Assembly (NCBI GenBank): GCA_022827265.1
Contig: JAJDTF010000131.1
Location: 62,001-126,000, forward strand
Direction: 5' to 3'
From: Acidimicrobiia bacterium
Lineage (GTDB): Bacteria > Actinomycetota > Acidimicrobiia > Acidimicrobiales > Poriferisodalaceae
DNA length: 64,000 nucleotides
The notes beneath the pieces are model-generated. The model saw nothing but the letters and a program-made list of their open reading frames with translations, was not told the origin of the DNA and searched no databases. The translations under genes were made by a program, and so were the position numbers. This document shows, in pieces, positions 41,568-56,197 of this stretch. Numbering within the stretch: position 1 is the stretch's first letter; the number at the start of each line of letters is the position of its first letter.

Positions 41568-42751
41568 TTGCAGCGCTGCGCACCTTCTACCGAGGCGAGA
41601 ACAGCTGGGACATCCTGCGCCTGTCACGCAAGGTGCTCCTGGGTTCCGCGGCGGCGGTGCTGATCTGTGTCGTGGCGCTGTTCGTCCGTGGCTTGAACCT
41701 GGGCATCGAGTTCGAAGGCGGCTCGGTGTGGGAGATACCGGTGCCCGAGGAAGCTCAAGGCGCCGGGGCGGATGACGCGGCAGCCGCTGATGGCGACGAG
41801 TCCGACGAACTCGGCACCGTCGACGAAGCCGGCAGCGAAGCTGACTCCGCGACCGGCGCCAGCGGCAACCGCACCGGTGTGACGACCGATGACGTCGCCG
41901 CTGTAGCCGCGGCGGCGGGCGTGCCCGACGCGCGCGTGCAGTTCGTGGTGGTCACCGGCGCGCCCGACATCTTCCGGGTGCGCGGCGTGCTGGGGCCCGA
42001 TGCCGACAGCGCGGCGGTGGCCGGAGCGCTGGCTGACGCCGTCGGCGTCGATGTGGAGAGCCTGTCGTCGCGGCAGGTCAGCCCGTCGTTCGGCGACGAG
42101 GTCGCCGGCAAGGCGCGCCGGGCGCTCGTGGTGTTCTTCGTGCTGATCGCGCTGTACCTGTGGTTCCGCTTCGAGTGGAAGATGTCGGTGGGCGCGCTGA
42201 TCGCCGTGGGGCACGACATCGTGCTGACCGTCGGCGCCTACGCGCTGTTCGGGTTCGAGGTGACGCCGGCGACAGTGGTGGCGTTCCTCACGATCATGGG
42301 CTATTCGCTGTACGACACGATCGTCGTATTCGACCGGGTGAAGTCCAACGAGCGGTCGCTGCCGGCGCGCAGCCACTTCACCTACCACGCGCTCGCCAAC
42401 GTGTCGCTCAACCAGGTGCTGACACGTTCGGTGAACACCTCGATCACCTCGGTGCTGCCCGTGCTGTCGCTGCTCGTCGTGGGCGCCGGGTTCCTCGGTG
42501 CGGGCACCCTGGCGGAGTTCGCGACGGCGCTGCTGATCGGTCTGCTCGTCGGGTCGTACAGCTCGATCTTCGTGGCGATGCCCACGGTTGCGTGGCTGAA
42601 GGGCTACGAGCCCGGCTGGGCCGCCGCACAGGTTGCGGCCGACGCCGCCGGCCGTCACGACTCGATGGAAGCTGCCACCCAGGCGCTCGCCGCGGAGAAC
42701 TACACCCGCAGCGCCCCGCCCCGCCCCCGCAAGAAGGGCCGCCGCCGCTAG
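41564..42751 (+). CDS. secF: Protein translocase subunit SecF
   Basis: 395 aa, GTG at 41564 overlapping the secD stop. First helix VLLGSAAAVLICVVALFVRG, then GIEFEGGSVWE (the FxGG motif), an acidic Asp/Ala/Glu-rich insertion of ~45 residues (about 65-107), and the C-terminal five-helix SecF domain (VSPSFGDEVAGKARRALVVF, ATVVAFLTIMGYSLYDTIVV, FDRVKSNE). Its acidic insertion parallels the one in SecD. A conserved actinobacterial neighbour such as apt is not found after it; the vWA/tubulin island starts instead. Confidence 0.95.
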   Translation: MIAALRTFYRGENSWDILRLSRKVLLGSAAAVLICVVALFVRGLNLGIEFEGGSVWEIPVPEEAQGAGADDAAAADGDESDELGTVDEAGSEADSATGASGNRTGVTTDDVAAVAAAAGVPDARVQFVVVTGAPDIFRVRGVLGPDADSAAVAGALADAVGVDVESLSSRQVSPSFGDEVAGKARRALVVFFVLIALYLWFRFEWKMSVGALIAVGHDIVLTVGAYALFGFEVTPATVVAFLTIMGYSLYDTIVVFDRVKSNERSLPARSHFTYHALANVSLNQVLTRSVNTSITSVLPVLSLLVVGAGFLGAGTLAEFATALLIGLLVGSYSSIFVAMPTVAWLKGYEPGWAAAQVAADAAGRHDSMEAATQALAAENYTRSAPPRPRKKGRRR

Positions 42752-43033
42752 CTCTCTACTCGCCGGTGGTCCAGTACCACTGCGGACCTCACGCGCCGCT
42801 CCGTACCCAGCTGGTTCGAACCAAGTCCGATGCTGATGAGAGCGAACACGTGCGTGCGTCCGGTCTGGAAGACTGGCAGGCCGTATGTGTCTCTCACTAC
42901 ATTCACGGCTCAGCATGATCATTCCTACGCGAATGACGCCGGGGGAGTTCAATTGGACGGGATCTTTCGATGATCACCTGCCGGTTCTCTTGTCAAGCCG
43001 AGTGAGGTGCGGGCAGGCAGAAGGCCGGCATCG
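42752..43033. other. Gap between secF and the vWA/tubulin island
   Basis: 282 bp with no convincing gene. GGTTCGAACC at 42813-42822 resembles a tRNA T-loop, but no cloverleaf forms around it. The gap probably holds the secF terminator and the promoter of the island; I cannot point to either. Confidence 0.5.
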
Positions 43034-43469
43034 ATGACCATGACTGATCGCCCGCCGCCGCGTCGGCCGGGCACACCGCCGCCGAAGGGGGGGGGGGTCA
43101 CAGCCGCCCTTTAGGCCTACGGCGGCCGGTACCGCTACCGGACCGCCGAAAGCAAGCTTCGCAGCCGCAGCAGCGGTGCTCGCGTTCACGCTGTTCAGCT
43201 TCTGGCTCGGGGCACGCGCCGAAATCGGCATCGCCAGCACCGGCCGCGAGGTCGACTTCAACACGCTCGGATACGTGGTCGGCTGCTTTGTCAGCATCTG
43301 GATGCTGTACCTGTTCTTGAGGGCAGACAGGCAGGCCCGTTCCACGCTGCGCTACAACGACTGGCCAGGCATCGGCGCCCGGGCTCTCATCGGCTGGCTG
43401 ACGCTGTGCAGTTGGTTGGGCGGCGCGCTGCACCTGTGGTTCTGGGCGCAGGATCTCACGAGGCCGTGA
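43034..43469 (+). CDS. Small membrane protein split by an 11-G tract
   Basis: From the ATG at 43034 the frame encodes MTMTDRPPPRRPGTPPPK, then enters a run of 11 G (43087-43097) and stops at a TAG just after it. With 10 G the frame would instead run on without a stop (SQPPFRPTAAGTATGPPKAS) into the membrane protein whose ORF is open from 43176 (VLAFTLFSFWLGARAEIGIA, then LGYVVGCFVSIWMLYLFLR and ALIGWLTLCSWLGGALHLWF), about 144 aa in all with three membrane helices. The C-terminal end overlaps the vWA gene start (GTGA), so the gene heads that operon. Either the tract is phase-variable and read here in the off state, or it is a length error in the sequence. Confidence 0.7.
43087..43097 (+). repeat. 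Poly-G tract (11 G)
   Basis: An uninterrupted run of 11 G inside the 5' end of a membrane-protein gene. Such tracts change length by slipped-strand mispairing. Removing one G restores one long reading frame. Confidence 0.95.
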
Positions 43470-46462
43470 CGGCCGCACATCGCACTCGTCGCCTGCTCCT
43501 CGCGGGAATGGTGGCACTTCTCGCCGCCTCAGCAGCACCGATGCTTGAGGTCACCTCGGCTGGCGCACAAGCGAGCAGCGAGCCCGGCGCGGGCGGTTAC
43601 ACGCCATGCGAGAGCGGACAGCAAGACATCGACTTGCTGGTCATGATGGACGCCTCGGGCTCACTCAATGCGCCTGCGTCAGGAATCGACAGCGACGGTC
43701 GCTTGCGCCGCACGGCGCTACAGAGGTTTCGCGAAGAACTCACGAGTCTGCTGCAGCGCCTGCCGCCCGCCGATGCCGGCAGCGTTCGCATATCGCTGTG
43801 GCGCTTCGAGAGCGATGTGACGCGCATCGCCGGCTTCGACCAGGCAACGGGCAGTCACCCATCCAACGCTCAGATCGAAGCATCGCTCGGTGAGCCGGTC
43901 GGCGGCGGGTACAGCTACCGCACCAATCACACCGACTATCTCCAGGCCCTGCGCGCTGCTGAGCGGGCGTTTCTGGACGAGGGCACGCCGGGCGCATGCC
44001 GTGTGCTGCTGTTCTTCAGCGACGGCCTGTACGACCCGACTGGCAGGCCCACGCTCGAGCAGGCCGATGAGCTGCGGGACGAGGTATGCCGTGATCTGAA
44101 ACTGAGCTACGAGCGTGCAGGCATCAACACCTTCTCGATCTTGCTCGGTCAAGCCTTCCGAGGCACCGTCGGCGGCTCGGAGCCGAGCGATGCCGACGAG
44201 ATCGACGCAGAGATGGCCGAATCGTCCAAGCAGATCCTGCGCGCGCTCACCGGCCACGCAGACTCGCCGCTGGTGCGGGGCCTGCCGTACTCGCGCCGGT
44301 TCGACTGCGAACGCTGGAGCGATGTGCAGCCCGACGACCGCGACGGGGCGATCATCGCCGTCGATGATCTCGATTCTCTGGCCATCCAACTGCTCGAAGT
44401 GGCTGAGACAGCGGCTCGCCAGCTTGTGGAGTGGAGGGACTGCGGAATTGCGCCTGGCAGCGGAGGACGCTCGGGTCCGCTGCCGGCGGGCAGATACATC
44501 GAGACCATCGTGGCTTACCCGCGCGGATCGCTCATTGAGCAATACGAGATCGTCACGGCTGACGGGCAGACGATCCGTGGACCCGGTGACCTCGACAGGC
44601 CGCTGTATCTCGAAAGCGACGTGCTGAGTGGCCTCGAGGCGGGTTGGACGCTCGAGTTCCTCACGGACGGTGGCAGCGGCGGCATTGAGGTCGCCTGCTA
44701 CGCCAGGAGAGCCACCCCTCCAACGGCCGATGTCGAGGGCACGGTCACTGACAGCGATGAGCAGCTGCTGCCCGATGTGGTCCGCAGCGCCGCCGGTGCC
44801 GACTCGCCGCCGCTCGACGGCGTGCGCATCGTCGCCGAGGCGCCTCCCGGTCTGTGCGAGCAAGGACCCGATGTGTGGCCGGATGAGCGTGTGCGCGATT
44901 GGTGGTGCCGCAGTGACGGCACCGTCGTGTTCGAGCTGCACCCGCTCGAGTGCCAGCAGTCATACGACCTCGACAAGCCGCTGGTGTACCGCTTCGAGCC
45001 GGCCTATGCCGAGGGTCTCTTCGGTCCTGGGGAGGTATCGCAACAGGTCCGCATCGAAGTAGCTGGCTCGGCCCGCCGTCTCTATGACTGCTTGGGCGCG
45101 CCTCTGCTGACGTGTGCAGATGACGCCGGTGCCACAGCCGGGGACGATGCTGCCGAGGCGCAAGATGGCAGCCCTTCAGCGGACGCGGTCGTGCTGACGT
45201 TGGTGATCGAACCCGACAGCCACGAACTGCCGCGCACGCCGCTGTCGGGTGTCACTGCGTGCCGGCTGTACCCACCCCAGGACGGCGTCGTGACCCTGCG
45301 AGCGCACTGGCGGCCTGACGCCAGCGCCGGGGACTTGCCCGGCGAGCTGGACTGGCGCTTCGACGGCGAGCACTACGGCAGCGAACTCGAGGGTGTTCTG
45401 GACGAGTCAGGACGAGAGCTTCGGCTCGGACCGGGCGGTGGCCCGGAAGGCGTGGTGCTCCGCTTCGTCACCACGGATGAGCTCGCGAATGCCGATTGGC
45501 GGATAGTCGGCGTGATCGAGCTAGTGCCCACCTGGCAGACCGGCGTGGCCGACCCGGCGATCAACGCAGTCGCCGACGCGCAGATGGCGGCCCAGCGCAC
45601 CGCAGTGAGAGCGGATGCCTCGTATGCGGCCCGCAGCGACTCGGGCTTGGCACGCTGGCTGACCCTGCTGGGGCTGCTCGCCACATTGCTGCTCAGCTAT
45701 GTGCTGTTCTGCCTGGCCTTGGCATCGACGTTCGGCTTGCCGGACCCCCGCCGATTCTGGTGGCGACACGCGGTGCTGGGGGTCGAACGAAGAACCGGAT
45801 CGAGCTACTCGTTCGTGAGCGGCGCCGTGCCTACGCTGGCCGCAGCGCCGGCCGAGGCGGTCCACAGCCAGCGCGTCGGCAGCAACCGAAGGCCTCGATA
45901 CACGGAGTGGCGTGGTCCTGCCTCACAGGCGGGGACCGACCGCATCAGCGTGGTTCTGCGCCGCTCGCCCAAATTCTGGCTGTTCGGCTTGCTGCGCGGC
46001 CCGTGGAGCGAGGTGCGGTCCGACGGCCGGGCCGTGGCAGTCCGGCCCAAGGGCCACAAGCGGTCTCGGCAGCCGACCAGAGCTGCTTCGCGAGCAGAAT
46101 TCGATCGTCTGATCGTGGTGGGCGCGCCGCGTCGAGACGGCAGCGGCGCCACCTCAGCCTCGGTCTGGGTGGCGCAGCCTAAGGACGGGCGGTTCTCGTC
46201 GTTGGAACAGCGCGATGAGCGCGAGTTGGCAAACCTGCTGAACGACGCCGCTCAGCAGAGTGAGGCTGAAGTCGACCTCGGCCCCCGCAGCGATTTCGTG
46301 ACGGATGCCGGAGCGACGCCCGCACGAGGCGGCGGCGCGGTGCCGGCTGGCGAGCAACCGCAACAGCACGTTGATCCCGAGGGGCCTCGCAGCGAGGAGC
46401 GGCCGCAGGCACCTCCCGGCCGACCTGAGCGACCGCCCCCGAGGCGGCGCAGCCCGGAATGA
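43466..46462 (+). CDS. Secreted/membrane vWA-domain protein of the tubulin-like island
   Basis: 998 aa, GTG at 43466 overlapping the previous stop. A signal peptide (RRLLLAGMVALLAASAAPML) precedes a von Willebrand A domain: DLLVMMDASGSLN holds the metal-site DxSxS (residues 62-66), with the expected Thr (YRTNHTDYLQAL) and Asp (LLFFSDGLYDPTG). The following ~450 residues look like beta-rich extracytoplasmic domains with paired cysteines. One membrane helix lies at ~730-755 (LLGLLATLLLSYVLFCLALA). The C-terminal ~240 residues are basic, presumably cytosolic, and end in a Pro/Arg tail. The topology would link an external metal-dependent adhesion domain to the cytosolic tubulin-like protein encoded next. 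Confidence 0.88.
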   Translation: MTAAHRTRRLLLAGMVALLAASAAPMLEVTSAGAQASSEPGAGGYTPCESGQQDIDLLVMMDASGSLNAPASGIDSDGRLRRTALQRFREELTSLLQRLPPADAGSVRISLWRFESDVTRIAGFDQATGSHPSNAQIEASLGEPVGGGYSYRTNHTDYLQALRAAERAFLDEGTPGACRVLLFFSDGLYDPTGRPTLEQADELRDEVCRDLKLSYERAGINTFSILLGQAFRGTVGGSEPSDADEIDAEMAESSKQILRALTGHADSPLVRGLPYSRRFDCERWSDVQPDDRDGAIIAVDDLDSLAIQLLEVAETAARQLVEWRDCGIAPGSGGRSGPLPAGRYIETIVAYPRGSLIEQYEIVTADGQTIRGPGDLDRPLYLESDVLSGLEAGWTLEFLTDGGSGGIEVACYARRATPPTADVEGTVTDSDEQLLPDVVRSAAGADSPPLDGVRIVAEAPPGLCEQGPDVWPDERVRDWWCRSDGTVVFELHPLECQQSYDLDKPLVYRFEPAYAEGLFGPGEVSQQVRIEVAGSARRLYDCLGAPLLTCADDAGATAGDDAAEAQDGSPSADAVVLTLVIEPDSHELPRTPLSGVTACRLYPPQDGVVTLRAHWRPDASAGDLPGELDWRFDGEHYGSELEGVLDESGRELRLGPGGGPEGVVLRFVTTDELANADWRIVGVIELVPTWQTGVADPAINAVADAQMAAQRTAVRADASYAARSDSGLARWLTLLGLLATLLLSYVLFCLALASTFGLPDPRRFWWRHAVLGVERRTGSSYSFVSGAVPTLAAAPAEAVHSQRVGSNRRPRYTEWRGPASQAGTDRISVVLRRSPKFWLFGLLRGPWSEVRSDGRAVAVRPKGHKRSRQPTRAASRAEFDRLIVVGAPRRDGSGATSASVWVAQPKDGRFSSLEQRDERELANLLNDAAQQSEAEVDLGPRSDFVTDAGATPARGGGAVPAGEQPQQHVDPEGPRSEERPQAPPGRPERPPPRRRSPE

Positions 46463-46529
46463 CGTCGGCCGCAGGGAAGACCTTGGACGACACCGGTCGA
46501 CGGCGTCGATCGCGACGAGGAAGGATCAC

Positions 46530-49500
46530 ATGTACAGCAAGTTCCTGTTCGTAGGACTCGGAGGATCGGGCGGCAAGACGCTTCGCTTTCTGAAACGTGA
46601 GATTGGGCGCTGGCTGGAAGCGAACAGTGCCGACACCCGCATACCGCAGGCGTGGCAGTTCCTCCACATCGACACTCCCACGGTTCCCGACGGCCAAGAG
46701 ATCAACGACATCGCACCCCAGCTCGACGACGACGAGTACATGGGCCTGATCAATGCTGGTCTGCCATTCACGGCGCTGGCGAACATGCTTGACGGCGACC
46801 CGCACCTGCGTCAGGAGTTGCGAACTTGGAGGGTGGAGCCGGCGGGCCTCGGAGTATCGGTGGACCAGGGCGCGGGCCAATTCCGTGCCGTGGGGCAGAC
46901 GGTAGCGATGGCCTATGCGAAGCGGATCCGCGACAAGCTCGAAGAGCGCGTGCGGCGCCTGAGGGGGCCGGGCGCGCAGAGCGAGCTGGGCGAGCTGTAC
47001 GACCGGGTCGGGCCGGCGGGCGACGGTCACGCCGGAGCCGACTCGAACATGTACATCGTCGTCATCAGTTCCCTCGCGGGCGGCACTGGCGCGGGGCTTC
47101 TGAACTTGGTGTGCGACTTGCTCCGCGCCATGGAGACCCCGGCAGGCGACAGCATCTTCGGTCTCTTGTACACGCCGGAGGTGTTCCACTCGCTCGGCAA
47201 AGCGGTGACCGGCGGGGTGTACCCCAATAGCCTGGCGGCGATCTGCGAAATGCTGAACGGCCAGTGGTGGCAGGGCAGCGACGTGGGAGCGCCGTCCATC
47301 GCGGCCCCGAAGCAGCAGGCCGTGCTGAGCCGAGCCGGCTTGCCGAAGCCTCAGGAGCGCAGCGGGCCCACGTACCCGTTCCTCGTCGGACGGGTGGCCG
47401 AGGGCGGCATCGACCACGGCACGCCGGACCGGCTGTTCGAGATGACGGGCCGCTCGCTGTTGTCGTGGGTGACCGACATGACGGTGCAGTCACGCTTTGT
47501 GGCCTACACCTCAGGGAACTGGGCGTCGTCGGCACTGGCGCACGATCAGGGCGACGTGCTGGTCGATGCAGGGGCGACGCACGAGCAAGGCCTGCCGTGC
47601 TTGTCGGCTCTCGGCTTTTCGCGCCTGTCCGTGGGCGGGGAGCACTTCGAGCGCTATGCGAAGGAGCGCCTCGTCACGGACGCGCTGAGCCACCTGGTGC
47701 GATATCACACGAATTCCGCCGAAGCGGTCGCGGTGGCTGAGCGCCTCGACACCGAGGACCCCGATGTGATTCGGCGCGCTATCGCCGAGGATCACCGGCG
47801 TGCGTTCTTGCACGAAACCCGGCTCGTCGAGGTGGGACCGGAAGACAACGAGATCATCGACGATCTCCGCCCGGCGCGTGATGGCGAGCTGTCCGCGGAG
47901 TTTGAGCGCCGAGTGCGGCAAAACGCGGGCCTTGGCCAGTACGACAGGCTAGGTGTCGAGGAATGGCGCAAGTACATCACCGACGCCATCGGCGAGGCTC
48001 GCAGAACCTACGAAGTGGAGTACCGCCGCGGCCTGGAGCATTCGACTGATGTTTGGGTTTCCGCCGTGCAGGTGCGCGTCATCGACGCGGTGAAGCGGCG
48101 CATCGGCATGCACGGGTTGCTGGTGACCGCCGAACTGTGTTCGCAGGCCGGTCGCTACCTCACCGAGGAGGTAGCCGTCGATCTCACCGAGAACGATGTG
48201 GTCCGGTATCGGCGCTGGGCCGCACAGGCGGCGGATATTGTCAACGAGGCCCTTGAGGACGCCAAAGGCAACGTGCAGAGCGACGACGCACGGCTGGAGG
48301 AGGCGGTTTCGCAGGGGGTGAACGCTGCCGGATATGCGGGCGATGCCCTGCTGTGTGGCCAAGCGGCAGCGCTCGCTACCCAAGTCAGCGACAGGATATT
48401 CGTACCGCTGTCGCGGGCGCTGCGCGACGCCCACGAAGTGGCAGAGGATGATGCACGTCGGGCCGTCAGCTGGGTCCATTGGGACGACGAGATTCCACCC
48501 GCACACGTTCGGCCGCCCGTCGGCGATTTCTCGCTGATTGATCCCGACGACTACCCCGGCCACTTCGCCGATCTGCTGAGCAAAGACGTCGGCGAGGCAG
48601 ATGGGCTGCAGGCGAAGCGCGAGCAGGCCCGCAGCGACATCATCTCGGGTTCGTTTCTCGATGAGCCCGCGGCCGCTGCAGGCGCGGATGTCACTTCCTG
48701 CTTGACCGTTGCGGCGTCGTGGTTTCCGGTGTTGGACTCGGCAGGCACTCAGGCGCCGGCCGAGCTGCGAGTCTCGCTGTCGGCCGGCCGCGATGAACTC
48801 GCCGAGCGAGCGCACGCGTGGCTGCGACGCCCCGGTTCGCCTTGGGAGAGCTTCTTGGGGCGCTCGGTTCGCGAATTCGTCGGCTCGACAGATGCGTTCG
48901 ATGCGAAAGCGATCCCCGAAGCCGAGGCGCGCCAGAACCGGTCGCGGTTCATCAACCAGCTCAACGCTGCCCTGAGAGCGGCGGCGCCGCTGATCAATAT
49001 CGACGATGGCCTGCTCGGACTCGTCCACCCCAATACCGCCCTGAGCGGGCCGCGCCTGCAGCTCAGCACCATGCCGTTGGCCGCGCACCCGATCACCGAG
49101 GATCTCCGCGCCGTGCTGTCCGGGGCCGGCATCCAGGACGACGAGATCGAGGCGGCGCTCACCAGCGATGCGTCGGTAGACCACATCGACATCACCAGCG
49201 CACTGGGAGCACCCGTCTCAGTCCTAGCGGTGGAATCGCTGTTGCGTCCGATTTCGGAGGGCTGGTTCGGGCTCGACTCGGTGGGGCAGCGCAACGCATT
49301 CTGGGCCCGCAGGCGTGCGCAGCCGCTCGAGTCGTTCGTTCCTGCCCCGCAGGCGTTAATCCGTTGCATGGTGCGCGGATGGTTCACGGGCCGTTTGCTC
49401 GGGTTGATCAAGGACGACGACGGCTCATGGGCCATCCGGATTCCCCGAGATGGCGGCTACCGGGTTTTCTCAAGCGACACGCTGTCGCGGCCCCGCGCCG

Positions 49501-50003
49501 TCGGCGACCGCGACGCACTGCCGCTTGTGCTCGAAGCCTTGGCGCTGGCATACGTGGACGTAAGCCGCGTCGGCACGCTGGGGCCGCTGGTTCCCTACGT
49601 CGAGCTGCGGGAGCTAGGACGCTCGAAGCCCCACGGCGGGCTGCTCGGCTACGAATCGCTGGCGCCCCCGCTCGACCGCTGGGCGAAGGATGGGCGGCTC
49701 GACGCCGAGGCGGCCGACGACGCGGTGCTGAACTCTGACGCCGCTCGCGAGGTAGTGAGCGCCTCGACGACAGCGGAGCGTTTGCCCGGACTCGCGTCGC
49801 TCTGCCGCGATGTCATTGCGAGCTACGAGAAGAGCTTCGCCGAACTGCAAGCGCAGTGGCGGGCGCAGCCGGCGCTGCTGTCCACCGCACCGCACTGGAG
49901 CGGCCTGTGGGAGCGCCACATGAGCCCGGCGCTCAACGACATTGCCCAGGCCGCGGACCGGCAAGCGCAGCAGCTCGCCGATGGCGCTGGGCCACTGATG
50001 TGA
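46530..50003 (+). CDS. Tubulin/FtsZ-like GTPase (Tubulin_2/FtsZl-1 type)
   Basis: 1157 aa, ATG after AGGAAGGATCAC. The N-terminal ~350 residues resemble the divergent bacterial tubulin-like family: MYSKFLFVGLGGSGGKTLRF (GLGGSGGKT, residues 9-17), FLHIDT, and the GTP-binding loop VVISSLAGGTGAGLLNLVCD with GGTGAG at 184-189, corresponding to the tubulin/FtsZ signature GGGTG(T/S)G. Further family-like parts are FGLLYTPEVFHSLG and YPNSLAAICEMLNGQWW. The remaining ~800 residues are mostly helical and of unknown fold. No membrane segment is seen, so it should be cytosolic. FtsZl-1 proteins are known to be encoded next to vWA and membrane proteins and were proposed to remodel membranes; the role here is inferred from that. 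Confidence 0.88.
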   Translation: MYSKFLFVGLGGSGGKTLRFLKREIGRWLEANSADTRIPQAWQFLHIDTPTVPDGQEINDIAPQLDDDEYMGLINAGLPFTALANMLDGDPHLRQELRTWRVEPAGLGVSVDQGAGQFRAVGQTVAMAYAKRIRDKLEERVRRLRGPGAQSELGELYDRVGPAGDGHAGADSNMYIVVISSLAGGTGAGLLNLVCDLLRAMETPAGDSIFGLLYTPEVFHSLGKAVTGGVYPNSLAAICEMLNGQWWQGSDVGAPSIAAPKQQAVLSRAGLPKPQERSGPTYPFLVGRVAEGGIDHGTPDRLFEMTGRSLLSWVTDMTVQSRFVAYTSGNWASSALAHDQGDVLVDAGATHEQGLPCLSALGFSRLSVGGEHFERYAKERLVTDALSHLVRYHTNSAEAVAVAERLDTEDPDVIRRAIAEDHRRAFLHETRLVEVGPEDNEIIDDLRPARDGELSAEFERRVRQNAGLGQYDRLGVEEWRKYITDAIGEARRTYEVEYRRGLEHSTDVWVSAVQVRVIDAVKRRIGMHGLLVTAELCSQAGRYLTEEVAVDLTENDVVRYRRWAAQAADIVNEALEDAKGNVQSDDARLEEAVSQGVNAAGYAGDALLCGQAAALATQVSDRIFVPLSRALRDAHEVAEDDARRAVSWVHWDDEIPPAHVRPPVGDFSLIDPDDYPGHFADLLSKDVGEADGLQAKREQARSDIISGSFLDEPAAAAGADVTSCLTVAASWFPVLDSAGTQAPAELRVSLSAGRDELAERAHAWLRRPGSPWESFLGRSVREFVGSTDAFDAKAIPEAEARQNRSRFINQLNAALRAAAPLINIDDGLLGLVHPNTALSGPRLQLSTMPLAAHPITEDLRAVLSGAGIQDDEIEAALTSDASVDHIDITSALGAPVSVLAVESLLRPISEGWFGLDSVGQRNAFWARRRAQPLESFVPAPQALIRCMVRGWFTGRLLGLIKDDDGSWAIRIPRDGGYRVFSSDTLSRPRAVGDRDALPLVLEALALAYVDVSRVGTLGPLVPYVELRELGRSKPHGGLLGYESLAPPLDRWAKDGRLDAEAADDAVLNSDAAREVVSASTTAERLPGLASLCRDVIASYEKSFAELQAQWRAQPALLSTAPHWSGLWERHMSPALNDIAQAADRQAQQLADGAGPLM

Positions 50004-53000
50004 GCACTGAAAGCGTGTCGGTCGAACCGGGCAGGGAACCCACTGCCATCACCGGTGCACTCGCGCTGCGCGCGGCAGGCGGCGGGCACCGCATCGTCCT
50101 GGTACTGCGTCACGCCGACGACGCAACCGTCGCGCTTGCCCTCGACGTGTGGGCGGAACTATCGGGGGCATCTCAGTTGTCGCCGTTCATGTGCGTTGAA
50201 CACCGCCCCTTCGCGGAAGACGACCAGACGCCACTGGACTTGGGTCGCTCGACCCGGCTGCTTGCGGGCGGTGCGTGGACGCCGGTCGGATTGATGTACA
50301 CGTTGCACGGCCTTGGCGAACTCAGCCGGGTCGACATTGTGACTGCGTGCACTGCGTTGCTCGACCAAACTCAGCAGGCAGAGCTGGCACGGGCGGACGT
50401 CATGCTGCGGCACGACCTTCGAAGAGTCATGCCTGAGGCCACGCCAGTGTCCTCTCATCGGGTGTGGATACCCCACTACGGGGATGCGGCGATGGCACCC
50501 GATGCCGCATTTGCGAGCCCTGAGGCAAACAGCGCGCTGGTGGTGCTGCCAGTCGACCGGCAGTTTGAGCGAGCCGCGGCCATGCCTGTGAGCGGTGCCG
50601 GCCCTGACGATGTGTACGCCTGGCATGTGGCGGTTGAGGTCGCGTCCCTTGCCGGCCTGTGGTCAACGATGGACGGCGCTCCGCTGGAGTTCGTCGAGAC
50701 GGCCGCCAGCGGCGTGGGCCGACCGCTGGTGCGACTGGTGCGCTCGATGTGCCGCGCCGCTCGCATCCATACGCCATCTCCGGAGCAATCGCTTGACGGG
50801 ACAGGCTTGCTGCCGTTGACGCCAGGCCTGCTGCCGGCCCCTGACGACGCGTTCATGGTCAAGGCCGCTGCGCCGCACATATACCCGTCGACGTTCCGGG
50901 TGTTGACAGGTACGCAGGGCGACATCGGCGCCGGCACGCGCACTGAAGACGGCGACGACGCGCGGCACAGAATGTTGCGCGGTTTGATCCCGCTCTCGGA
51001 GGAGGTGCACGTCCGCCGTCTCGCAGTCGAGACGATCAGCAGTGTGCTCGAGCGCGATGATGCTGCTGCAGACGCAGCGTCACAGCTCGACGACTACATC
51101 GCGGACACCGTCGCGATCGCGTCATGGACGGAGCCGCTCGCCCGAGACGTGGCTCTTGGCGTTGAGGTTTCCTCGACTGCAGGTGCTGAGGCACAGGCGT
51201 TGCTTGACAGCACTCGTGCTCCGGTGTCGATCGAAGCGGTGCCGGTACAGGGCTGGGAGGAATTGCTCGATGGCGTGTTCGGCATGGCCGACGCGACACA
51301 CGCGAGCGAGGGAATCCGGGCTGCTGCGACAAGTGCCCGCTATGTGGTGGTCGACCCTCACGCCCTCGCTCCCGACGCAGACGCGCTGACTACGGCGCTC
51401 TCGGCGCTCGATGGTGATGAGCACCGGCATGCCGACGGTCGCTACAGGAAGGCCGACTCTGCAGGCGACCTCGTGGATCTCGACCCTGGTGATCTTCGGT
51501 CGGACGACGAGATGAGCGACGCGATCGATCTAGCCGACCTAGCGGAGGACGCGGCGCCGGGCATGGTGCAGCGAGCAGGCCCAGACCAACATGGCAAGGC
51601 ACCGCTGCTCATCGAGGTGACGGGCCAATTCGATGCAGAGATCGAGCGGTCCGAGCGCGATGTCGAGCGCCAGATCGAGCTGCTGCACGCCCGCATGCGC
51701 CACGAGAACCGGCCTGAACCGGGCGTCACCTCGTTTGTGGCATACGCACTGTTGGCATCGGTGCTGATCGGCATCGGCTCGCTGTTGACGCTCACAGGGT
51801 TGCGTGAAGTGATCACGCCTGACCGGCTCTCCGAGCAATCCAGGGTTGCCTCGTTCCTGCTGCTGGCGCTGGTCGCGACCTTGCCACCGGTGCTCCGGCT
51901 GACCCCGAGCCGAAGCTGGTCGGCACAGGTTCGTCTCACCCTGGTGGCCGCGATCTACGCCGGAAGCGCCGCTGCGGTGATAGTCGCGGCGCCGGCAATC
52001 GAGGAGAGTCCCCTCGACCGGCCGGGCCAGTGGCTTCCCGCTGGGGCGGTGGTGCTCATCGTGATGTCATTGGCAATCACTGCGTGGATCCGTGGATTCG
52101 TCGGTGACCGGGCGCTGTTGGGCCCCTTGGCGGCACTGGTGGGGGATCGCACTGCCGGGGCGGTGCCGTTTGCCTACGCCTTCGTCATGGTGGTCGCCGT
52201 ACTGAACTTCGATCAGACCGCGCCGGCGGCCTTCGAGAACCGGAACTGGCGGTTGCTCACGGTCCTGCTGGCAGTTGCAATCGCGGTCGCGATAGCAACG
52301 GGGGGTTTGGTTCGCCTCGTACGCCGGCGCGATCGGCGACAGGTGAGCGAATGGCGACAGCGCATCGATGAACTCGTCGATGGGTGTGAGTTGGGCTCGG
52401 CGCGCACGGCGGCGCTTGAGGTGCTCAAGGCCCACTGGCTGACGACAGCGGCCGTGGCGGCTCGGCTCGTGCATCGCCCATTCGGGTCGCACCGTGCGGC
52501 AGCGGCGCCGCACGACCCGGAGTCCGCCGTGCGCAAGCTGCTGATGTTCGACCTCGAGCTCACTGAGGAGACCCGCGACGCTTATCTCGGCGAGCTGTTG
52601 CCTGAGCTCGCGTCGAGCGGCTGGCTACGCGAGCAATACCGCCGGATGTCGTCCCAATTCGTCAATAGCGAACGGTCGAGATTCGGGATCGGCGCCGACG
52701 GCTACATGCCGCCGCCCGAACACTGCACGTACCCGATGTCGCTCGAGTCGGTGATGGGCGCTGGAGGCAGCGGGCCTCGGTGGCGATTCGCAGAGCGTGT
52801 GTACGCCGGCGACTTCGATTCCGTGCTGCACGAAGCCGCGGAAGATGCACTGAGCCGGGCCATGGCGGCGACATTCATGTCCGACCAGATAGCCGTGTCG
52901 CTCGGTCCCGCCGACAGCGGCCGCCAGACGCTTCCGCAACTGCTGGGTGAGCTGCTGCCTTCGGATGAGGCGCGGCTGCCTTCGGGCACGCTGCCCCCGA

Positions 53001-53269
53001 GCACGGAGCCCTCTCCCGAATACCAGTCCTTGGTTTGGTGGCCGGAGGCGGTATCGATGCCCGCCGAAAACCCGCCAACTGCGCATCAGTGTCGACACTT
53101 GCGGCAACAAGGAACGATTCTGTTTCACGCTGTGCGTGTGGACATTTCCGAGCCCGTCGGCATGGAGCGTGTGACTCCGATCAGCGAGCCCGATGTGACT
53201 GACCGGGTCGGTGCGGGCGATTCGGCGACGCGCGGTTCGACCGGCGCACCTGCCGATCCGCTGATGTGA
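50000..53269 (+). CDS. Large multi-pass membrane protein of the tubulin-like island
   Basis: 1089 aa, GTG at 50000 overlapping the tubulin-like stop. No recognised family. The first ~570 residues are soluble with acidic patches. About six membrane helices lie in the middle: SFVAYALLASVLIGIGSLLT, SFLLLALVATLPPVLRL, LTLVAAIYAGSAAAVIVAA, GAVVLIVMSLAITAWI, VPFAYAFVMVVAVLNF, and LLTVLLAVAIAVAIATGGLV. A basic loop (RLVRRRDRRQVSEWRQRIDE) and a ~300-residue mainly helical cytosolic domain follow. Overlapping starts imply co-translation with the tubulin-like GTPase, so it is a candidate membrane anchor or channel for it. Confidence 0.8.
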   Translation: MSTESVSVEPGREPTAITGALALRAAGGGHRIVLVLRHADDATVALALDVWAELSGASQLSPFMCVEHRPFAEDDQTPLDLGRSTRLLAGGAWTPVGLMYTLHGLGELSRVDIVTACTALLDQTQQAELARADVMLRHDLRRVMPEATPVSSHRVWIPHYGDAAMAPDAAFASPEANSALVVLPVDRQFERAAAMPVSGAGPDDVYAWHVAVEVASLAGLWSTMDGAPLEFVETAASGVGRPLVRLVRSMCRAARIHTPSPEQSLDGTGLLPLTPGLLPAPDDAFMVKAAAPHIYPSTFRVLTGTQGDIGAGTRTEDGDDARHRMLRGLIPLSEEVHVRRLAVETISSVLERDDAAADAASQLDDYIADTVAIASWTEPLARDVALGVEVSSTAGAEAQALLDSTRAPVSIEAVPVQGWEELLDGVFGMADATHASEGIRAAATSARYVVVDPHALAPDADALTTALSALDGDEHRHADGRYRKADSAGDLVDLDPGDLRSDDEMSDAIDLADLAEDAAPGMVQRAGPDQHGKAPLLIEVTGQFDAEIERSERDVERQIELLHARMRHENRPEPGVTSFVAYALLASVLIGIGSLLTLTGLREVITPDRLSEQSRVASFLLLALVATLPPVLRLTPSRSWSAQVRLTLVAAIYAGSAAAVIVAAPAIEESPLDRPGQWLPAGAVVLIVMSLAITAWIRGFVGDRALLGPLAALVGDRTAGAVPFAYAFVMVVAVLNFDQTAPAAFENRNWRLLTVLLAVAIAVAIATGGLVRLVRRRDRRQVSEWRQRIDELVDGCELGSARTAALEVLKAHWLTTAAVAARLVHRPFGSHRAAAAPHDPESAVRKLLMFDLELTEETRDAYLGELLPELASSGWLREQYRRMSSQFVNSERSRFGIGADGYMPPPEHCTYPMSLESVMGAGGSGPRWRFAERVYAGDFDSVLHEAAEDALSRAMAATFMSDQIAVSLGPADSGRQTLPQLLGELLPSDEARLPSGTLPPSTEPSPEYQSLVWWPEAVSMPAENPPTAHQCRHLRQQGTILFHAVRVDISEPVGMERVTPISEPDVTDRVGAGDSATRGSTGAPADPLM

Positions 53270-53335
53270 CCATTCGAAGCGCGCCGCGACCGCGGGTCTT
53301 GGCCCCCACTGCGGGGTGTCGCCGGCAGGACACCG

Positions 53336-55168
53336 TTGGCTGAACCTCCGCGCTCGCCGCGCAGTCGCCGCAACCCGTTGCGGCCTGAGCCACTGCAGCG
53401 CCGACCGCCGCCTAGGGAAGACAGCAGCCGCACGACGCGACGTGCCGCGGGCGACGCGCCTCCGCGCACGCAACGGCCCGCCGCTGCACCAATCTCGCGG
53501 CGCTCGCCATCAGATGCTTCCACACGCTTGTCCAGCGGGCGGAGGCCGGCATTCCGCGCGACACGGAAACCGACCCTCGCCTTCACAGCTTTGGCCGTGC
53601 TGATTGTCGTCATCGTCGTGGTGAGCCCTCGGGTGTTCGGTGGTGGTGACCCGACTGATGTTGGGCTTGCCTCGCAATCCGCTCCTGCGAGCGGCGTGAC
53701 CTCGTGGCCACGTGCTGAGACTGATCCGACCCAGGCGCGAGCAGCCCCGGACGACGGCTTTCCCTCAGCATCTAGCGGCGCTGAAGCGTCAGCCAGTCGG
53801 CTCGCAGCCGCTGAGGCCGCACCGAGCGCTGCCCTCCTCGACACGGAAGAACGCGAGTTGCTTGTACACGCTGCCGTTCCCGACTGGGAAGTGCTCGCGC
53901 AGTCGGTAGTGCAGCTGATCGCGCCGGATTGCGAGCAGGCTGGCTCGGGAACGATCATCGGAGACGGTCGGCTCGTCTTGACGAACTCGCACGTACTGCA
54001 CGCCGGTGGAGACGGCCCCGTCTGCGAGGTCTACGCGGGCCTCACTCGACGTTTCGATGCGTCACCGGATGACTGGCAGCCCGCTGAGCTCGTGGCGGAT
54101 GATCTCAGCCGGGACCTCGCAGCGGTGCGCCTCGCCGACACGCCGACGGGCATTCACGCGCCGCTACAGGTCGAGGGAGGCCAGCTCGCGCTAGGCGACC
54201 AATTGACGATTCTTGGCTATCCCGGCTTCGGCGACACTCAGGACACACTGACGTTCACCAGCGGCAGGTTCTCCGGCACGACAACCAGCGCCGAGGGACT
54301 CCAAATGCTCAAGACCGATGCGCTGCTGGACTCAGGCGTGAGCGGCGGCGCAGTGTTCGATCGGCGCGGTCGTCTCGTCGGTGTTGCCACAGGCGGCTAC
54401 GAGGGCGAGGGTGGCACGCTTGGCGCAGTGATCCCCGGCAGGGAGGTGTTGCGCTTCCTCGCTGAGCATGGACTGCAAGCCGGAGTCGGCGCTGCTACGT
54501 CAGGGGCGACGGCGTCATCATCATCGGCGATCATTCCGACCGTCACTTTCCCTGAGGCGTCTGTTCGTGACCCGGAGGCTGAGGCTGCCGATCTTGAGCG
54601 ACGCCGCAGCGTGATCGGCCTGTTCGAGCGTCTACGCGTCGAAACCGAGCACCGTGCCGGCTATCGCCGCGATGATCTCTTCCCTGGGTGGCTCTACAGC
54701 GGAGGTCTATCGACCAGGGACCGCGTGCTCTCCGAGGAGCGACGGTCTGACGGCTCGTGGCTCTCGGCGTATGACGCATCGGTTGTGGCCGAGTCGTCTG
54801 AGTTGGATATCGATCATCTCGTGCCGCTGGCAGAGGCGTGGGAGTCTGGCGGGTACGAGTGGAGGGCCGACACATGGACTCGCTTCGCCAACGACCGCAC
54901 GGACCCGCGCTCGCTGATCGCCGTGAGCGCAACTGCTAACCGGAGCAAGGGCGCGCGGGATCCCGCCGAATGGTGGCCGCCGAGTTCGTCGTACCGCTGC
55001 CAGTACGCGGCCGACTGGGTCGCCGTCAAGGCCCGCTGGGACCTGGCAGTGGACTCCGCTGAACAGGAATCGCTTGACGCGCAGCTCGGCCAATGCACCG
55101 GCGCCGATTTCGACTTCGCCAAGCCGGTGCCGGCTCGAGTCCGGTTAGTGCTCGGACCGGCAGAATGA
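53336..55168 (+). CDS. Membrane-anchored trypsin-like protease fused to HNH nuclease
   Basis: 610 aa from a TTG at 53336 after CAGGACACC. Residues 1-78 are Arg/Pro-rich and cytosolic, and ~79-100 form one membrane helix (LAFTALAVLIVVIVVVSPRV). A linker follows, then a trypsin-like (DegP-type) protease with the full triad: His219 in LVLTNSHVLHAG, Asp260 in LSRDLAAVRL, Ser336 in DSGVSGGAVFD. No PDZ domain follows; instead residues ~420-605 form a secreted-type HNH nuclease of the DUF1524-like group: ELDIDHLVPLAEAWESGGYE (Asp493-His494) and ANRSKGARDPAEWWPPSSSY (Asn535). Both enzymes would face outward. A short overlapping ORF from GTG 53266 may couple translation to the upstream gene. Confidence 0.88.
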   Translation: MAEPPRSPRSRRNPLRPEPLQRRPPPREDSSRTTRRAAGDAPPRTQRPAAAPISRRSPSDASTRLSSGRRPAFRATRKPTLAFTALAVLIVVIVVVSPRVFGGGDPTDVGLASQSAPASGVTSWPRAETDPTQARAAPDDGFPSASSGAEASASRLAAAEAAPSAALLDTEERELLVHAAVPDWEVLAQSVVQLIAPDCEQAGSGTIIGDGRLVLTNSHVLHAGGDGPVCEVYAGLTRRFDASPDDWQPAELVADDLSRDLAAVRLADTPTGIHAPLQVEGGQLALGDQLTILGYPGFGDTQDTLTFTSGRFSGTTTSAEGLQMLKTDALLDSGVSGGAVFDRRGRLVGVATGGYEGEGGTLGAVIPGREVLRFLAEHGLQAGVGAATSGATASSSSAIIPTVTFPEASVRDPEAEAADLERRRSVIGLFERLRVETEHRAGYRRDDLFPGWLYSGGLSTRDRVLSEERRSDGSWLSAYDASVVAESSELDIDHLVPLAEAWESGGYEWRADTWTRFANDRTDPRSLIAVSATANRSKGARDPAEWWPPSSSYRCQYAADWVAVKARWDLAVDSAEQESLDAQLGQCTGADFDFAKPVPARVRLVLGPAE

Positions 55169-55256
55169 GGAACTCTGAGGTTCGAGTGCCGACGGCTCGG
55201 CGAGTAGAGCCATGACCTGAGGCTCGATGGCGCAGGTTTGGTCGTGACCGAGGCGG

Positions 55257-55847
55257 TCAGAAGGCACCGTGGGCTTGCAGGCGCGACAGATCGGCGGCGA
55301 GATCGCGGCCACGGTTTGCGCCACGAGCTGCGAGCAGTTCGACCAGTCGTCGTGCCTCGGACCAGTCATCATCGGATGCCGATTCGCGGAGTGCTCTCAA
55401 GTCGTCTGCATCCATCGGCCGGCGCCGATCGTCGCGTGCCAGCAGCTTCATGACGATCAAGCTGCCGATGCTGGCGACCGGCAGGACGGTTCCGGGCAGC
55501 ACCTCGATCTGCTGCGATGAGGCGACAACCTCAGGCTCGACCCCGCACATGGCGAACATCAAATCCAAGCCCACGCCGGTTCCGGCGTCATGAACACGCA
55601 CACCGGCCAACCGACCGGTTTCGTCCTGCTCGAGCAGCGACGCGACGCCGTACCCGGCCGTCATGAATGCCCTGGCTACGGACTCCGCGTCGCCGTCGTC
55701 AGCTACCGCCACGGCAATGTCGACGTCGCCGGTGCTTCGTGGCACCGTGAGAGCCGAAATCGCGATGCCGCCGACCAGCGCAAAGCCCTTGCCGAGATCC
55801 TTCAGCACTTCGCTGGCGCGCATGAGCGCGTCGTCGAGGCGCGTCAC
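55257..55847 (-). CDS. Nucleotidyltransferase toxin (AbiEii/MNT-like)
   Basis: 196 aa from a GTG at 55847 overlapping the antitoxin stop (GTGA). It has the minimal nucleotidyltransferase motif: GFALVGGIAISALTVPRSTG with the GG, then DVDIAV (the DxD metal pair). The C-terminal half (LPVASIGSLIVMKLLARDDR, RPMDADDLRALRES) matches AbiEii/AbiGii-type or MNT-type toxins. Such enzymes transfer nucleotides to tRNA or to protein targets. Unlike the remnant at 13677 this copy is complete. It sits just outside the vWA/tubulin island, convergent with it. Confidence 0.78.
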   Translation of the reverse strand: MTRLDDALMRASEVLKDLGKGFALVGGIAISALTVPRSTGDVDIAVAVADDGDAESVARAFMTAGYGVASLLEQDETGRLAGVRVHDAGTGVGLDLMFAMCGVEPEVVASSQQIEVLPGTVLPVASIGSLIVMKLLARDDRRRPMDADDLRALRESASDDDWSEARRLVELLAARGANRGRDLAADLSRLQAHGAF

Positions 55848-56053
55848 TGCAAGTGTGGGGGAACGGGGACCTCGCGCAAGTAGCCGTCGGCATCGAGATG
55901 GCGATCACCGCCGGACGCCCATTCGTCGATGGCAGCACGGATTTCCGCCTGTGTGACCGCCGGATTCTCACGTCGAAGCCGGGCCTCGATCATGCGCTCA
56001 GCGGCCTCGAACAAGTCAAAAACGGTAAGGCCGGGATTCGGGTCCGTCCCCAC
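55844..56053 (-). CDS. Small antitoxin partner of the nucleotidyltransferase
   Basis: 69 aa from a GTG at 56053, seven nt after TAGGCT (minus strand), so probably leaderless. It is mostly helical (TVFDLFEAAERMIEARLRRE, TQAEIRAAIDEWASGG) with a short tail (YLREVPVPPHLQ). It precedes and overlaps the toxin gene, the usual antitoxin-first order. The family is not recognised; its role is inferred from context. Confidence 0.6.
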   Translation of the reverse strand: MGTDPNPGLTVFDLFEAAERMIEARLRRENPAVTQAEIRAAIDEWASGGDRHLDADGYLREVPVPPHLQ

Positions 56054-56197
56054 GCTTGCCAGCCTAGAACGCTGGTCGTCGCGTCAATCTGATTTGGGCA
56101 GTCCCCGCGGAGCGGGCACGGCAGAATGGGAGCGTGAGTCTCTTCGCGTTCGGTCCGGTGCCGGGCGAGCACCGCAGCGAGAAGCTTGGCTAGGGCT

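What the first reader, a model, noticed from the sequence alone, without database searches (positions are those of the whole stretch)
43034..55168. Five-gene vWA / tubulin-like GTPase / membrane / protease-nuclease island inserted between secF and rel
Seen: five co-oriented genes, the first four coupled by GTGA-type overlaps or a short gap with its own ribosome site, encode a 3-helix membrane protein, a secreted vWA protein with one membrane helix, a cytosolic tubulin-like GTPase with GGTGAG, a 6-helix membrane protein, and a membrane-anchored protease-HNH fusion. Known: FtsZl-1-type tubulin relatives were reported next to vWA and membrane proteins and proposed to act in membrane remodelling. 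Inference: this is a transenvelope machine that couples an external sensor (vWA, metal-dependent) to a cytosolic GTPase polymer and delivers or activates an external protease/nuclease, possibly in defence or competition. The pairing with a protease-nuclease effector is not one I know as described.
Basis: partly seen in the sequence, partly recalled or inferred. Interest (0 to 1): 0.88.

Follow-up and report, generated by a model that had tools for sequence, protein, structure and literature searches.

The report
Operon pairing soluble and membrane tubulin-like proteins
This bacterial gene cluster encodes an outside sensor-like protein, a cytoplasmic relative of tubulin, a membrane protein whose predicted shape is also tubulin-like, and in some lineages a surface protease, which makes it an untested candidate for a tubulin machine that works across the cell membrane.

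Summary
The island is real, with one correction: the small membrane ORF at its 5' end is out of frame in a G11 run. Tubulin_2 (PF13809), vWA with intact MIDAS and Trypsin_2+HNH domains are confirmed. Small-TM, vWA, tubulin and 'membrane' genes form one module: vWA-tubulin-membrane were in order in 41/41 loci with enough flank; in 298 genomes of the order the tubulin and membrane genes occur in exactly the same 15 genomes; their distance matrices correlate (r 0.86-0.93). A membrane-anchored trypsin-like protease follows in 11/40, one fused to the membrane protein. The HNH domain is restricted to the window's own small clade. The new point is the '6-helix membrane protein': its AlphaFold model matches tubulins/CetZ (Z to 11.6; top 29 rows all tubulins), with the membrane helices inserted between the two tubulin subdomains and no GTP-binding loop. 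At the same operon position in a distant branch lies a protein that scores as Tubulin_2 by sequence. The island sits at a gain/loss site between secF and rel. Kin: FtsZl1-vWA operons (2010) and actinobacterial GAP1-N2/tubulin conflict systems (2020), without their GAP1-N2. Function is untested; defence is not supported by context.

The parts
43034..43469 (+). small membrane-protein gene, frame broken: ATG frame 43034-43114, hydrophobic part in frame 43176-43469
   Evidence: relatives L035 and L036 read from the ATG into the TM part; window and L046 are shifted at the G-run. A small 2-3 TM gene lies at this place in most loci
43086..43100 (+). G-run (about 11 G) where the frame is lost; phase variation or assembly error
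43466..46462 (+). secreted/TM-anchored vWA protein: signal peptide, extracellular vWA with intact MIDAS and conserved cysteines, TM helix near residue 734, cytosolic Pro-rich tail
   Evidence: Pfam VWA_2 3.9e-5; invariant D62, S64, S66, T156, D186 and C178, C208, C281 in 36 homologues; topology
46530..50003 (+). cytosolic tubulin-like GTPase of the FtsZl1/Tubulin_2 family; complete tubulin fold with a large helical insertion
   Evidence: PF13809 2.1e-35; AF2 model pLDDT 88; VIA-align Z 19.7-22.4 to tubulin/CetZ over model residues 2-1017
50000..53269 (+). predicted membrane-integral tubulin-fold protein: N-domain about 29-300, six TM helices about 578-773, C-domain about 840-1062, no glycine-rich GTP loop
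   Evidence: AF2 model pLDDT 70.6, 80-95 in the two domains; VIA-align top 29 rows all tubulins/CetZ, Z 8.6-11.6; no sequence similarity to the tubulin gene
53336..55168 (+). membrane-anchored trypsin-like serine protease fused to an HNH (GmrSD_C/DUF1524) domain; start codon uncertain
   Evidence: Trypsin_2 2.1e-22, GmrSD_C 5.8e-8; His/Asp/Ser conserved in the family alignment
55257..56053 (-). AbiEii-type nucleotidyltransferase plus small partner ORF, an accessory pair between island and rel; not part of the conserved module
   Evidence: AbiEii 1.8e-10; partner ORF
42752..56113 (.). extent of the island relative to empty sites (secF-rel gap of 110-144 bp in five genomes of the genus)

Best explanation
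The island is an accessory transmembrane machine built on two tubulin-fold proteins. SHOWN: a conserved module (small TM protein, secreted vWA protein with intact MIDAS, GTP-loop-bearing tubulin-like protein, membrane protein) kept and diverging together, in some lineages followed by or fused to a membrane-anchored protease. PREDICTED: the membrane protein is a second tubulin fold without a GTP loop, split by a block of membrane helices, with both halves on the cytosolic side. INFERRED: the membrane tubulin anchors or nucleates the cytosolic GTPase tubulin at the inner face of the membrane (as gamma-tubulin caps, or FtsA/ZipA tether, a filament); binding of a metal-dependent ligand by the external vWA domain is relayed through its single TM helix and cytosolic tail to trigger or reset GTP-driven assembly; assembly acts back on the envelope, and where a protease is present its output is outside-face proteolysis. 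In the window's clade the protease has also acquired a nuclease domain.
For: vWA, tubulin and membrane gene in order in 41/41 loci; the same 15 of 298 genomes carry the tubulin and membrane genes; Mantel r 0.86-0.93, 0/2000 shuffles. Tubulin model Z 22.4 to CetZ. Membrane-protein model: top 29 rows all tubulin family, Z 8.6-11.6, next row Z 6.8, N- and C-domains both aligned across the TM block. The positional counterpart in a distant branch (L160:1553-3796, central TM helix) matches Tubulin_2 at 3.5e-9, above the cut-off, and its family aligns to the module's tubulin profile at E 1.7e-5. MIDAS invariant in 36 vWA homologues. Proteases right after or fused to the membrane gene in 11/40; other zinc-protease-like genes in L085 and L087.
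Against: Nothing here tests polymerisation, GTP hydrolysis, ligand binding or signalling. The membrane protein's fold rests on one AlphaFold model of moderate confidence; Foldseek alone gave no hit below E 0.06, and its profile shows no similarity to the tubulin or to the distant-branch counterpart. In most loci no protease follows, so proteolysis cannot be the general output. The small TM gene is frameshifted in this genome.
Confidence: 0.42

Rival explanations
1. Membrane-remodelling or vesicle machine, as proposed for FtsZl1 operons in 2010: the tubulin pair deforms the cytoplasmic membrane, the vWA protein couples it to the wall or surface, and the protease only matures envelope proteins. 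No role in conflict.
For: FtsZl1-vWA-membrane gene association and that proposal (PMC2875224). Flanks of modules mostly housekeeping. Core more widely conserved than the protease association.
Against: Patchy presence (about 5% of genomes of the order), gain and loss within one genus and faster divergence than the flanking secF gene do not fit a basic cell function.
Confidence: 0.25
2. Stripped-down member of the NTP-dependent conflict systems: the vWA-tubulin-membrane core of actinobacterial GAP1-N2/tubulin systems that lacks GAP1 and its GTPase and uses a protease(-nuclease) as effector against invaders.
For: The same vWA-tubulin-membrane core lies upstream of GAP1-N2 genes in a Rhodococcus opacus megaplasmid (L170) and in G682 (L163), with one gene in between; such systems are argued to be immune or apoptotic (PMC7159879). 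In this genus the locus alternates with toxin-antitoxin genes and an AbiEii-type gene.
Against: GAP1-N2 is absent from the window's genome and from all other module-bearing genomes of the order that were searched. No enrichment of defence genes beside other modules. A nuclease on the outer face would not meet intracellular phage DNA.
Confidence: 0.22
3. The fifth gene is an unrelated neighbour: an HtrA/MarP-like envelope protease with a DNA-scavenging HNH domain that merely sits next to a four-gene module.
For: 66-bp gap and no overlap; NCBIfam weak hits to DegP and MarP; 29 of 39 examined loci lack it.
Against: Ten of 12 trypsin-like genes found in 981 kb around modules lie directly after the membrane gene, one fused to it and one (L051) overlapping it by 4 bp; the label changes at least five times on the tubulin tree.
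Confidence: 0.12
4. The tubulin match of the membrane protein is a generic Rossmann-like resemblance and the protein is an unrelated membrane scaffold.
For: Moderate model confidence, no sequence link for the window's protein, Foldseek without a significant hit.
Against: Unrelated Rossmann folds (Rab, Arf) score only Z 5.5-6.1 while all 29 top rows are tubulins, and the match includes the C-terminal domain beyond the TM block; the distant-branch counterpart is tubulin-like by sequence.
Confidence: 0.2

Closest known systems
FtsZl1 (Tubulin_2, PF13809) operons, Makarova and Koonin 2010 (PMC2875224)
   Same: Tubulin-like protein with GTP loop, helical central part and C-terminal domain; operon with a vWA protein carrying MIDAS and with membrane proteins; patchy distribution.
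   Different: That paper could not identify T6-H7 or a tubulin C-terminal domain and left lineage-specific membrane genes unassigned; here the model shows a complete tubulin fold and the membrane gene is predicted to be a second tubulin fold; a membrane-anchored protease is a recurrent partner.
Actinobacterial GAP1-N2/tubulin GTPase-centric conflict systems, Kaur et al. 2020 (PMC7159879)
   Same: Single tubulin gene with helical C-terminal part and a membrane-bound vWA protein; the same vWA-tubulin-membrane core lies upstream of GAP1-N2 in Rhodococcus opacus (L170) and G682 (L163).
   Different: No GAP1-N2 anywhere in the window's genome or in the other module genomes of the order searched; a protease or another lineage-specific gene follows instead.
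BtubA/BtubB, alpha/beta- and gamma-tubulin, CetZ
   Same: Fold; idea of two different tubulin-fold partners.
   Different: All soluble and without membrane insertions as far as known (own knowledge); no vWA partner; sequence identity about 5-14% in structural alignment.
GmrSD type IV restriction enzyme / DUF1524 nucleases
   Same: HNH domain of the GmrSD_C family.
   Different: No DUF262 (GmrSD_N) domain; the domain follows a TM helix and a protease and is predicted to be extracellular.

Membership tests
FtsZl1 / Tubulin_2 | N-terminal Tubulin_2 domain with glycine-rich GTP loop | tested here: met
   PF13809 2.1e-35, SSLAGGTGAG; G184, G185, G187, G189 invariant in 47 sequences
FtsZl1 / Tubulin_2 | central helical/coiled region and C-terminal domain | tested here: met
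   AF2 model: long helices 476-644 and a C-terminal domain aligned to tubulin
FtsZl1 / Tubulin_2 | operon association with a vWA protein | tested here: met
   41/41 loci with enough flank
Tubulin/FtsZ superfamily (for the membrane protein 50000-53269) | tubulin fold of N- and C-domains | tested here: met
   predicted model only: top 29 rows tubulins, Z 8.6-11.6
Tubulin/FtsZ superfamily (for the membrane protein 50000-53269) | GTP-binding GGGTG(S/T)G loop | tested here: not met
   no such motif in the 40-sequence alignment
Tubulin/FtsZ superfamily (for the membrane protein 50000-53269) | detectable sequence homology | tested here: inconclusive
   none for the window's family; positional counterpart in G618 matches Tubulin_2 at 3.5e-9, but that family does not align to the window's
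GAP1-N2 GTPase-centric conflict system | GAP1-N2 protein in the neighbourhood | tested here: not met
   absent from the operon and from the whole genome as held
GAP1-N2 GTPase-centric conflict system | tubulin with helical C-terminal part plus membrane-bound vWA protein | tested here: met
GAP1-N2 GTPase-centric conflict system | TRAFAC-type DO-GTPase in the operon | tested here: not met
   no such domain among the five proteins; not searched in the rest of the genome
MoxR-vWA ternary system | MoxR-like AAA+ ATPase in the operon | tested here: not met
   no AAA+ domain in the five proteins
HtrA/DegP or MarP protease (fifth gene) | trypsin fold with His-Asp-Ser triad | tested here: met
   Trypsin_2 2.1e-22; alignment
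HtrA/DegP or MarP protease (fifth gene) | curated family score (PDZ-bearing HtrA or multi-TM MarP) | tested here: not met
   46 bits (degP_htrA_DO) and 41 bits (MarP) against cut-offs of 416 and 250; no PDZ hit
GmrSD restriction enzyme | GmrSD_N (DUF262) domain with GmrSD_C | tested here: not met
   only GmrSD_C found

The most novel reading that the evidence does not exclude
Bacteria use a two-component tubulin system in which one partner is an integral membrane protein: a GTP-loop-less tubulin fold interrupted by membrane helices anchors or nucleates a cytosolic GTPase tubulin and links it to an external metal-dependent sensor and, in some lineages, to a surface protease.
Probability: 0.4. 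Interest if true: 0.86.

Novelty: new variant of a known kind. Interest (0 to 1): 0.66.

Why it matters
FtsZl1 proteins have been known since 2010 and I found no paper that tests their function; no membrane partner was understood. If the membrane gene is a tubulin fold, the reviewer's 2010 objection (how a cytosolic tubulin could work with secreted partners, PMC2875224) gets a concrete answer that can be tested: a tubulin built into the membrane. It would be, to my knowledge, the first integral-membrane tubulin homologue, and it would tie FtsZl1 operons and GAP1-N2/tubulin conflict systems to one shared core. Relatives in Rhodococcus, Kutzneria, Actinosynnema and Patulibacter put the module within reach of cultured bacteria.

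Tried and rejected
Sequence link between the two tubulin-fold proteins: hhalign of whole profiles and of separate N- and C-domains found none. GAP1 as the identity of the membrane protein: no GAP1 hit in 40 homologues. Known solved relatives by sequence: none for the membrane protein; only weak FtsZ/TubZ hits at the GTP loop for the tubulin. Foldseek on the membrane-protein model: nothing below E 0.06. Defence annotation: PADLOC found only the generic trypsin domain in the window's proteins and no defence enrichment in 78 flanking proteins (hits such as DndA are cysteine desulfurase look-alikes). Mobility: no phage match; two Rhodococcus megaplasmids only. Compositional foreignness: none. Promoter and terminator scan: below the shuffle expectation. 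Laying out the whole genome and the phylum-wide alignment search failed for technical reasons. HNH as a general part of the system: rejected, fused only in the window and L036; stand-alone DUF1524 genes near L054, L075 and L076 may be chance.

Full report
WHAT IS THERE. Between secF (41564-42751) and rel (56198-58504) lie, on the plus strand, a vWA gene (43466-46462), a Tubulin_2 gene (46530-50003), a membrane-protein gene (50000-53269) and a protease-HNH gene (53336-55168), preceded by a small membrane ORF and followed by an AbiEii-type gene pair on the minus strand. The small ORF is not intact as described: the frame from ATG 43034 stops at 43114 after a G11 run, and the hydrophobic segment is in another frame (43176-43469). 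Relatives L035 and L036 read through; L046 is shifted too. This may be phase variation or an assembly error.

THE FOUR-GENE MODULE. Starting from the tubulin protein, 298 genomes of the order gave 15 with a convincing homologue (16 with one spurious fragment), and a scan of a collection with one genome for each of 84,980 species gave 80 loci. Gene maps show the order small TM protein, vWA protein, tubulin, membrane protein. A frame-independent count found vWA and membrane gene in order around the tubulin in 41 of 41 loci with enough flank. A separate search with the membrane-protein profile found strong matches in exactly the same 15 genomes. Distance matrices correlate at r = 0.92 (membrane/tubulin), 0.93 (membrane/vWA) and 0.86 (tubulin/vWA), with 0 of 2000 shuffles as high. 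Caveat: the loci were collected through the tubulin, and the profiles were built from a subset of them.

THE TUBULIN. The AlphaFold model (pLDDT 88) matches tubulins and CetZ at Z 19.7-22.4, with residues 2-1017 covering tubulin residues 1-434. A large helical insertion, roughly 400-650, separates the GTPase part from the C-terminal part. The 2010 description of FtsZl1 could not identify T6-H7 or a tubulin C-terminal domain (PMC2875224); the model supplies a C-terminal domain in prediction.

THE MEMBRANE PROTEIN. It has no Pfam match. Its model (pLDDT 70.6 overall, 80-95 in most of two domains) was compared by VIA-align: the top 29 entries are all tubulin-superfamily proteins (CetZ1 Z 11.6, 244 residues, rmsd 4.3), and the first unrelated row is Z 6.8. 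The alignment runs from residue 30 to about 1062 and so spans both sides of the TM block (about 578-773). The number of TM helices by hydropathy is mostly even across homologues (six or two; a few are called odd by the crude method), as expected if both halves are cytosolic. The GTP loop is missing. Sequence comparison does not link it to the tubulin. Further support comes from a distant actinobacterial branch: at the same operon position lies a protein of about 780 residues with TM helices in the middle; one of these matches Tubulin_2 at 3.5e-9, over the cut-off, and the family aligns to the tubulin profile at 1.7e-5. That family and the window's do not align to each other by sequence, so their equivalence rests on position, layout and predicted fold.

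THE PROTEASE. A trypsin-like gene follows the membrane gene in 10 of 39 loci with enough sequence, plus the window; in L027 it is fused to the C-terminal part of the membrane protein. Ten of the 12 trypsin-like genes detected in 981 kb lie at this position. On the tubulin tree the trait needs at least five changes. Other lineages carry zinc-protease-like genes nearby: an HELGH motif in L070 and L085 and a matrixin in L087. The HNH domain is fused only in the window and L036; L046 has the protease without it.

THE SITE. In the window's genus (11 genomes) four carry the module at 77-100% identity. The others show secF and rel 110-144 bp apart (G184, G312, G100, G314, G159), a Phd/YefM-ParE toxin-antitoxin pair (G059), or a PHD-like antitoxin gene plus remnants of the protease-HNH 3' end and of the AbiEii region (G268). 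G268 therefore looks like a scar: its lineage once carried sequence from this island. G313 has the module between secF and rel; G315 has it next to secF; G316 carries two modules, location relative to secF not shown. Island genes are more diverged than secF, and the tubulin allele of the window is more diverged (dS 0.85) than its neighbours (0.36-0.62), which suggests replacement of the tubulin gene by recombination.

RELATION TO KNOWN SYSTEMS. The tubulin is an FtsZl1 member. The core also occurs upstream of GAP1-N2, with one gene in between, in a Rhodococcus opacus megaplasmid and in G682, which ties it to the tubulin subtype of the GAP1-N2 conflict systems (PMC7159879). GAP1-N2 is absent from the window's genome and the other module genomes of the order searched. 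So the window holds the shared core without the GAP1 arm.

FUNCTION. Shown: conservation as a unit, invariant MIDAS in the vWA domain, recurrent protease. Predicted: two tubulin folds, one in the membrane. Inferred: anchoring of a GTP-driven tubulin assembly to the membrane, control by an external ligand, protease output in some lineages. Defence is possible but not supported by neighbours; membrane remodelling remains open.

Noticed in passing
window 43086-43100: G11 run breaks the frame of the small membrane gene; the relatives differ in length and frame here, so it may be phase-variable.
   Followed up: partly
window 55257-56053 (-): AbiEii-type nucleotidyltransferase with a small partner ORF between the island and rel.
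   Followed up: partly
L148 (G268) 1128-1270: Remnant of the protease-HNH 3' end and of the AbiEii region at an otherwise module-free secF-rel site: a deletion scar.
   Followed up: yes
L147 (G059): Phd/YefM-ParE toxin-antitoxin pair occupies the same secF-rel site.
   Followed up: yes
window 46530-50003: Tubulin allele is more diverged from close relatives (dS 0.85) than its operon neighbours (0.36-0.62), suggesting gene replacement within the operon.
   Followed up: partly
L070:16008-17756, L085:17479-19071, L087:16035-16919: Metalloprotease-like genes (HELGH motif without Pfam match; matrixin) downstream of the module where no trypsin-like gene is found.
   Followed up: partly
G316 (L036, L044): One genome of the genus carries two different modules, 78% and 45% identical to the window's tubulin.
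   Followed up: no
L165:7307-8290: Divergently oriented membrane-anchored trypsin-like gene beside a distant-branch vWA-tubulin operon.
   Followed up: no
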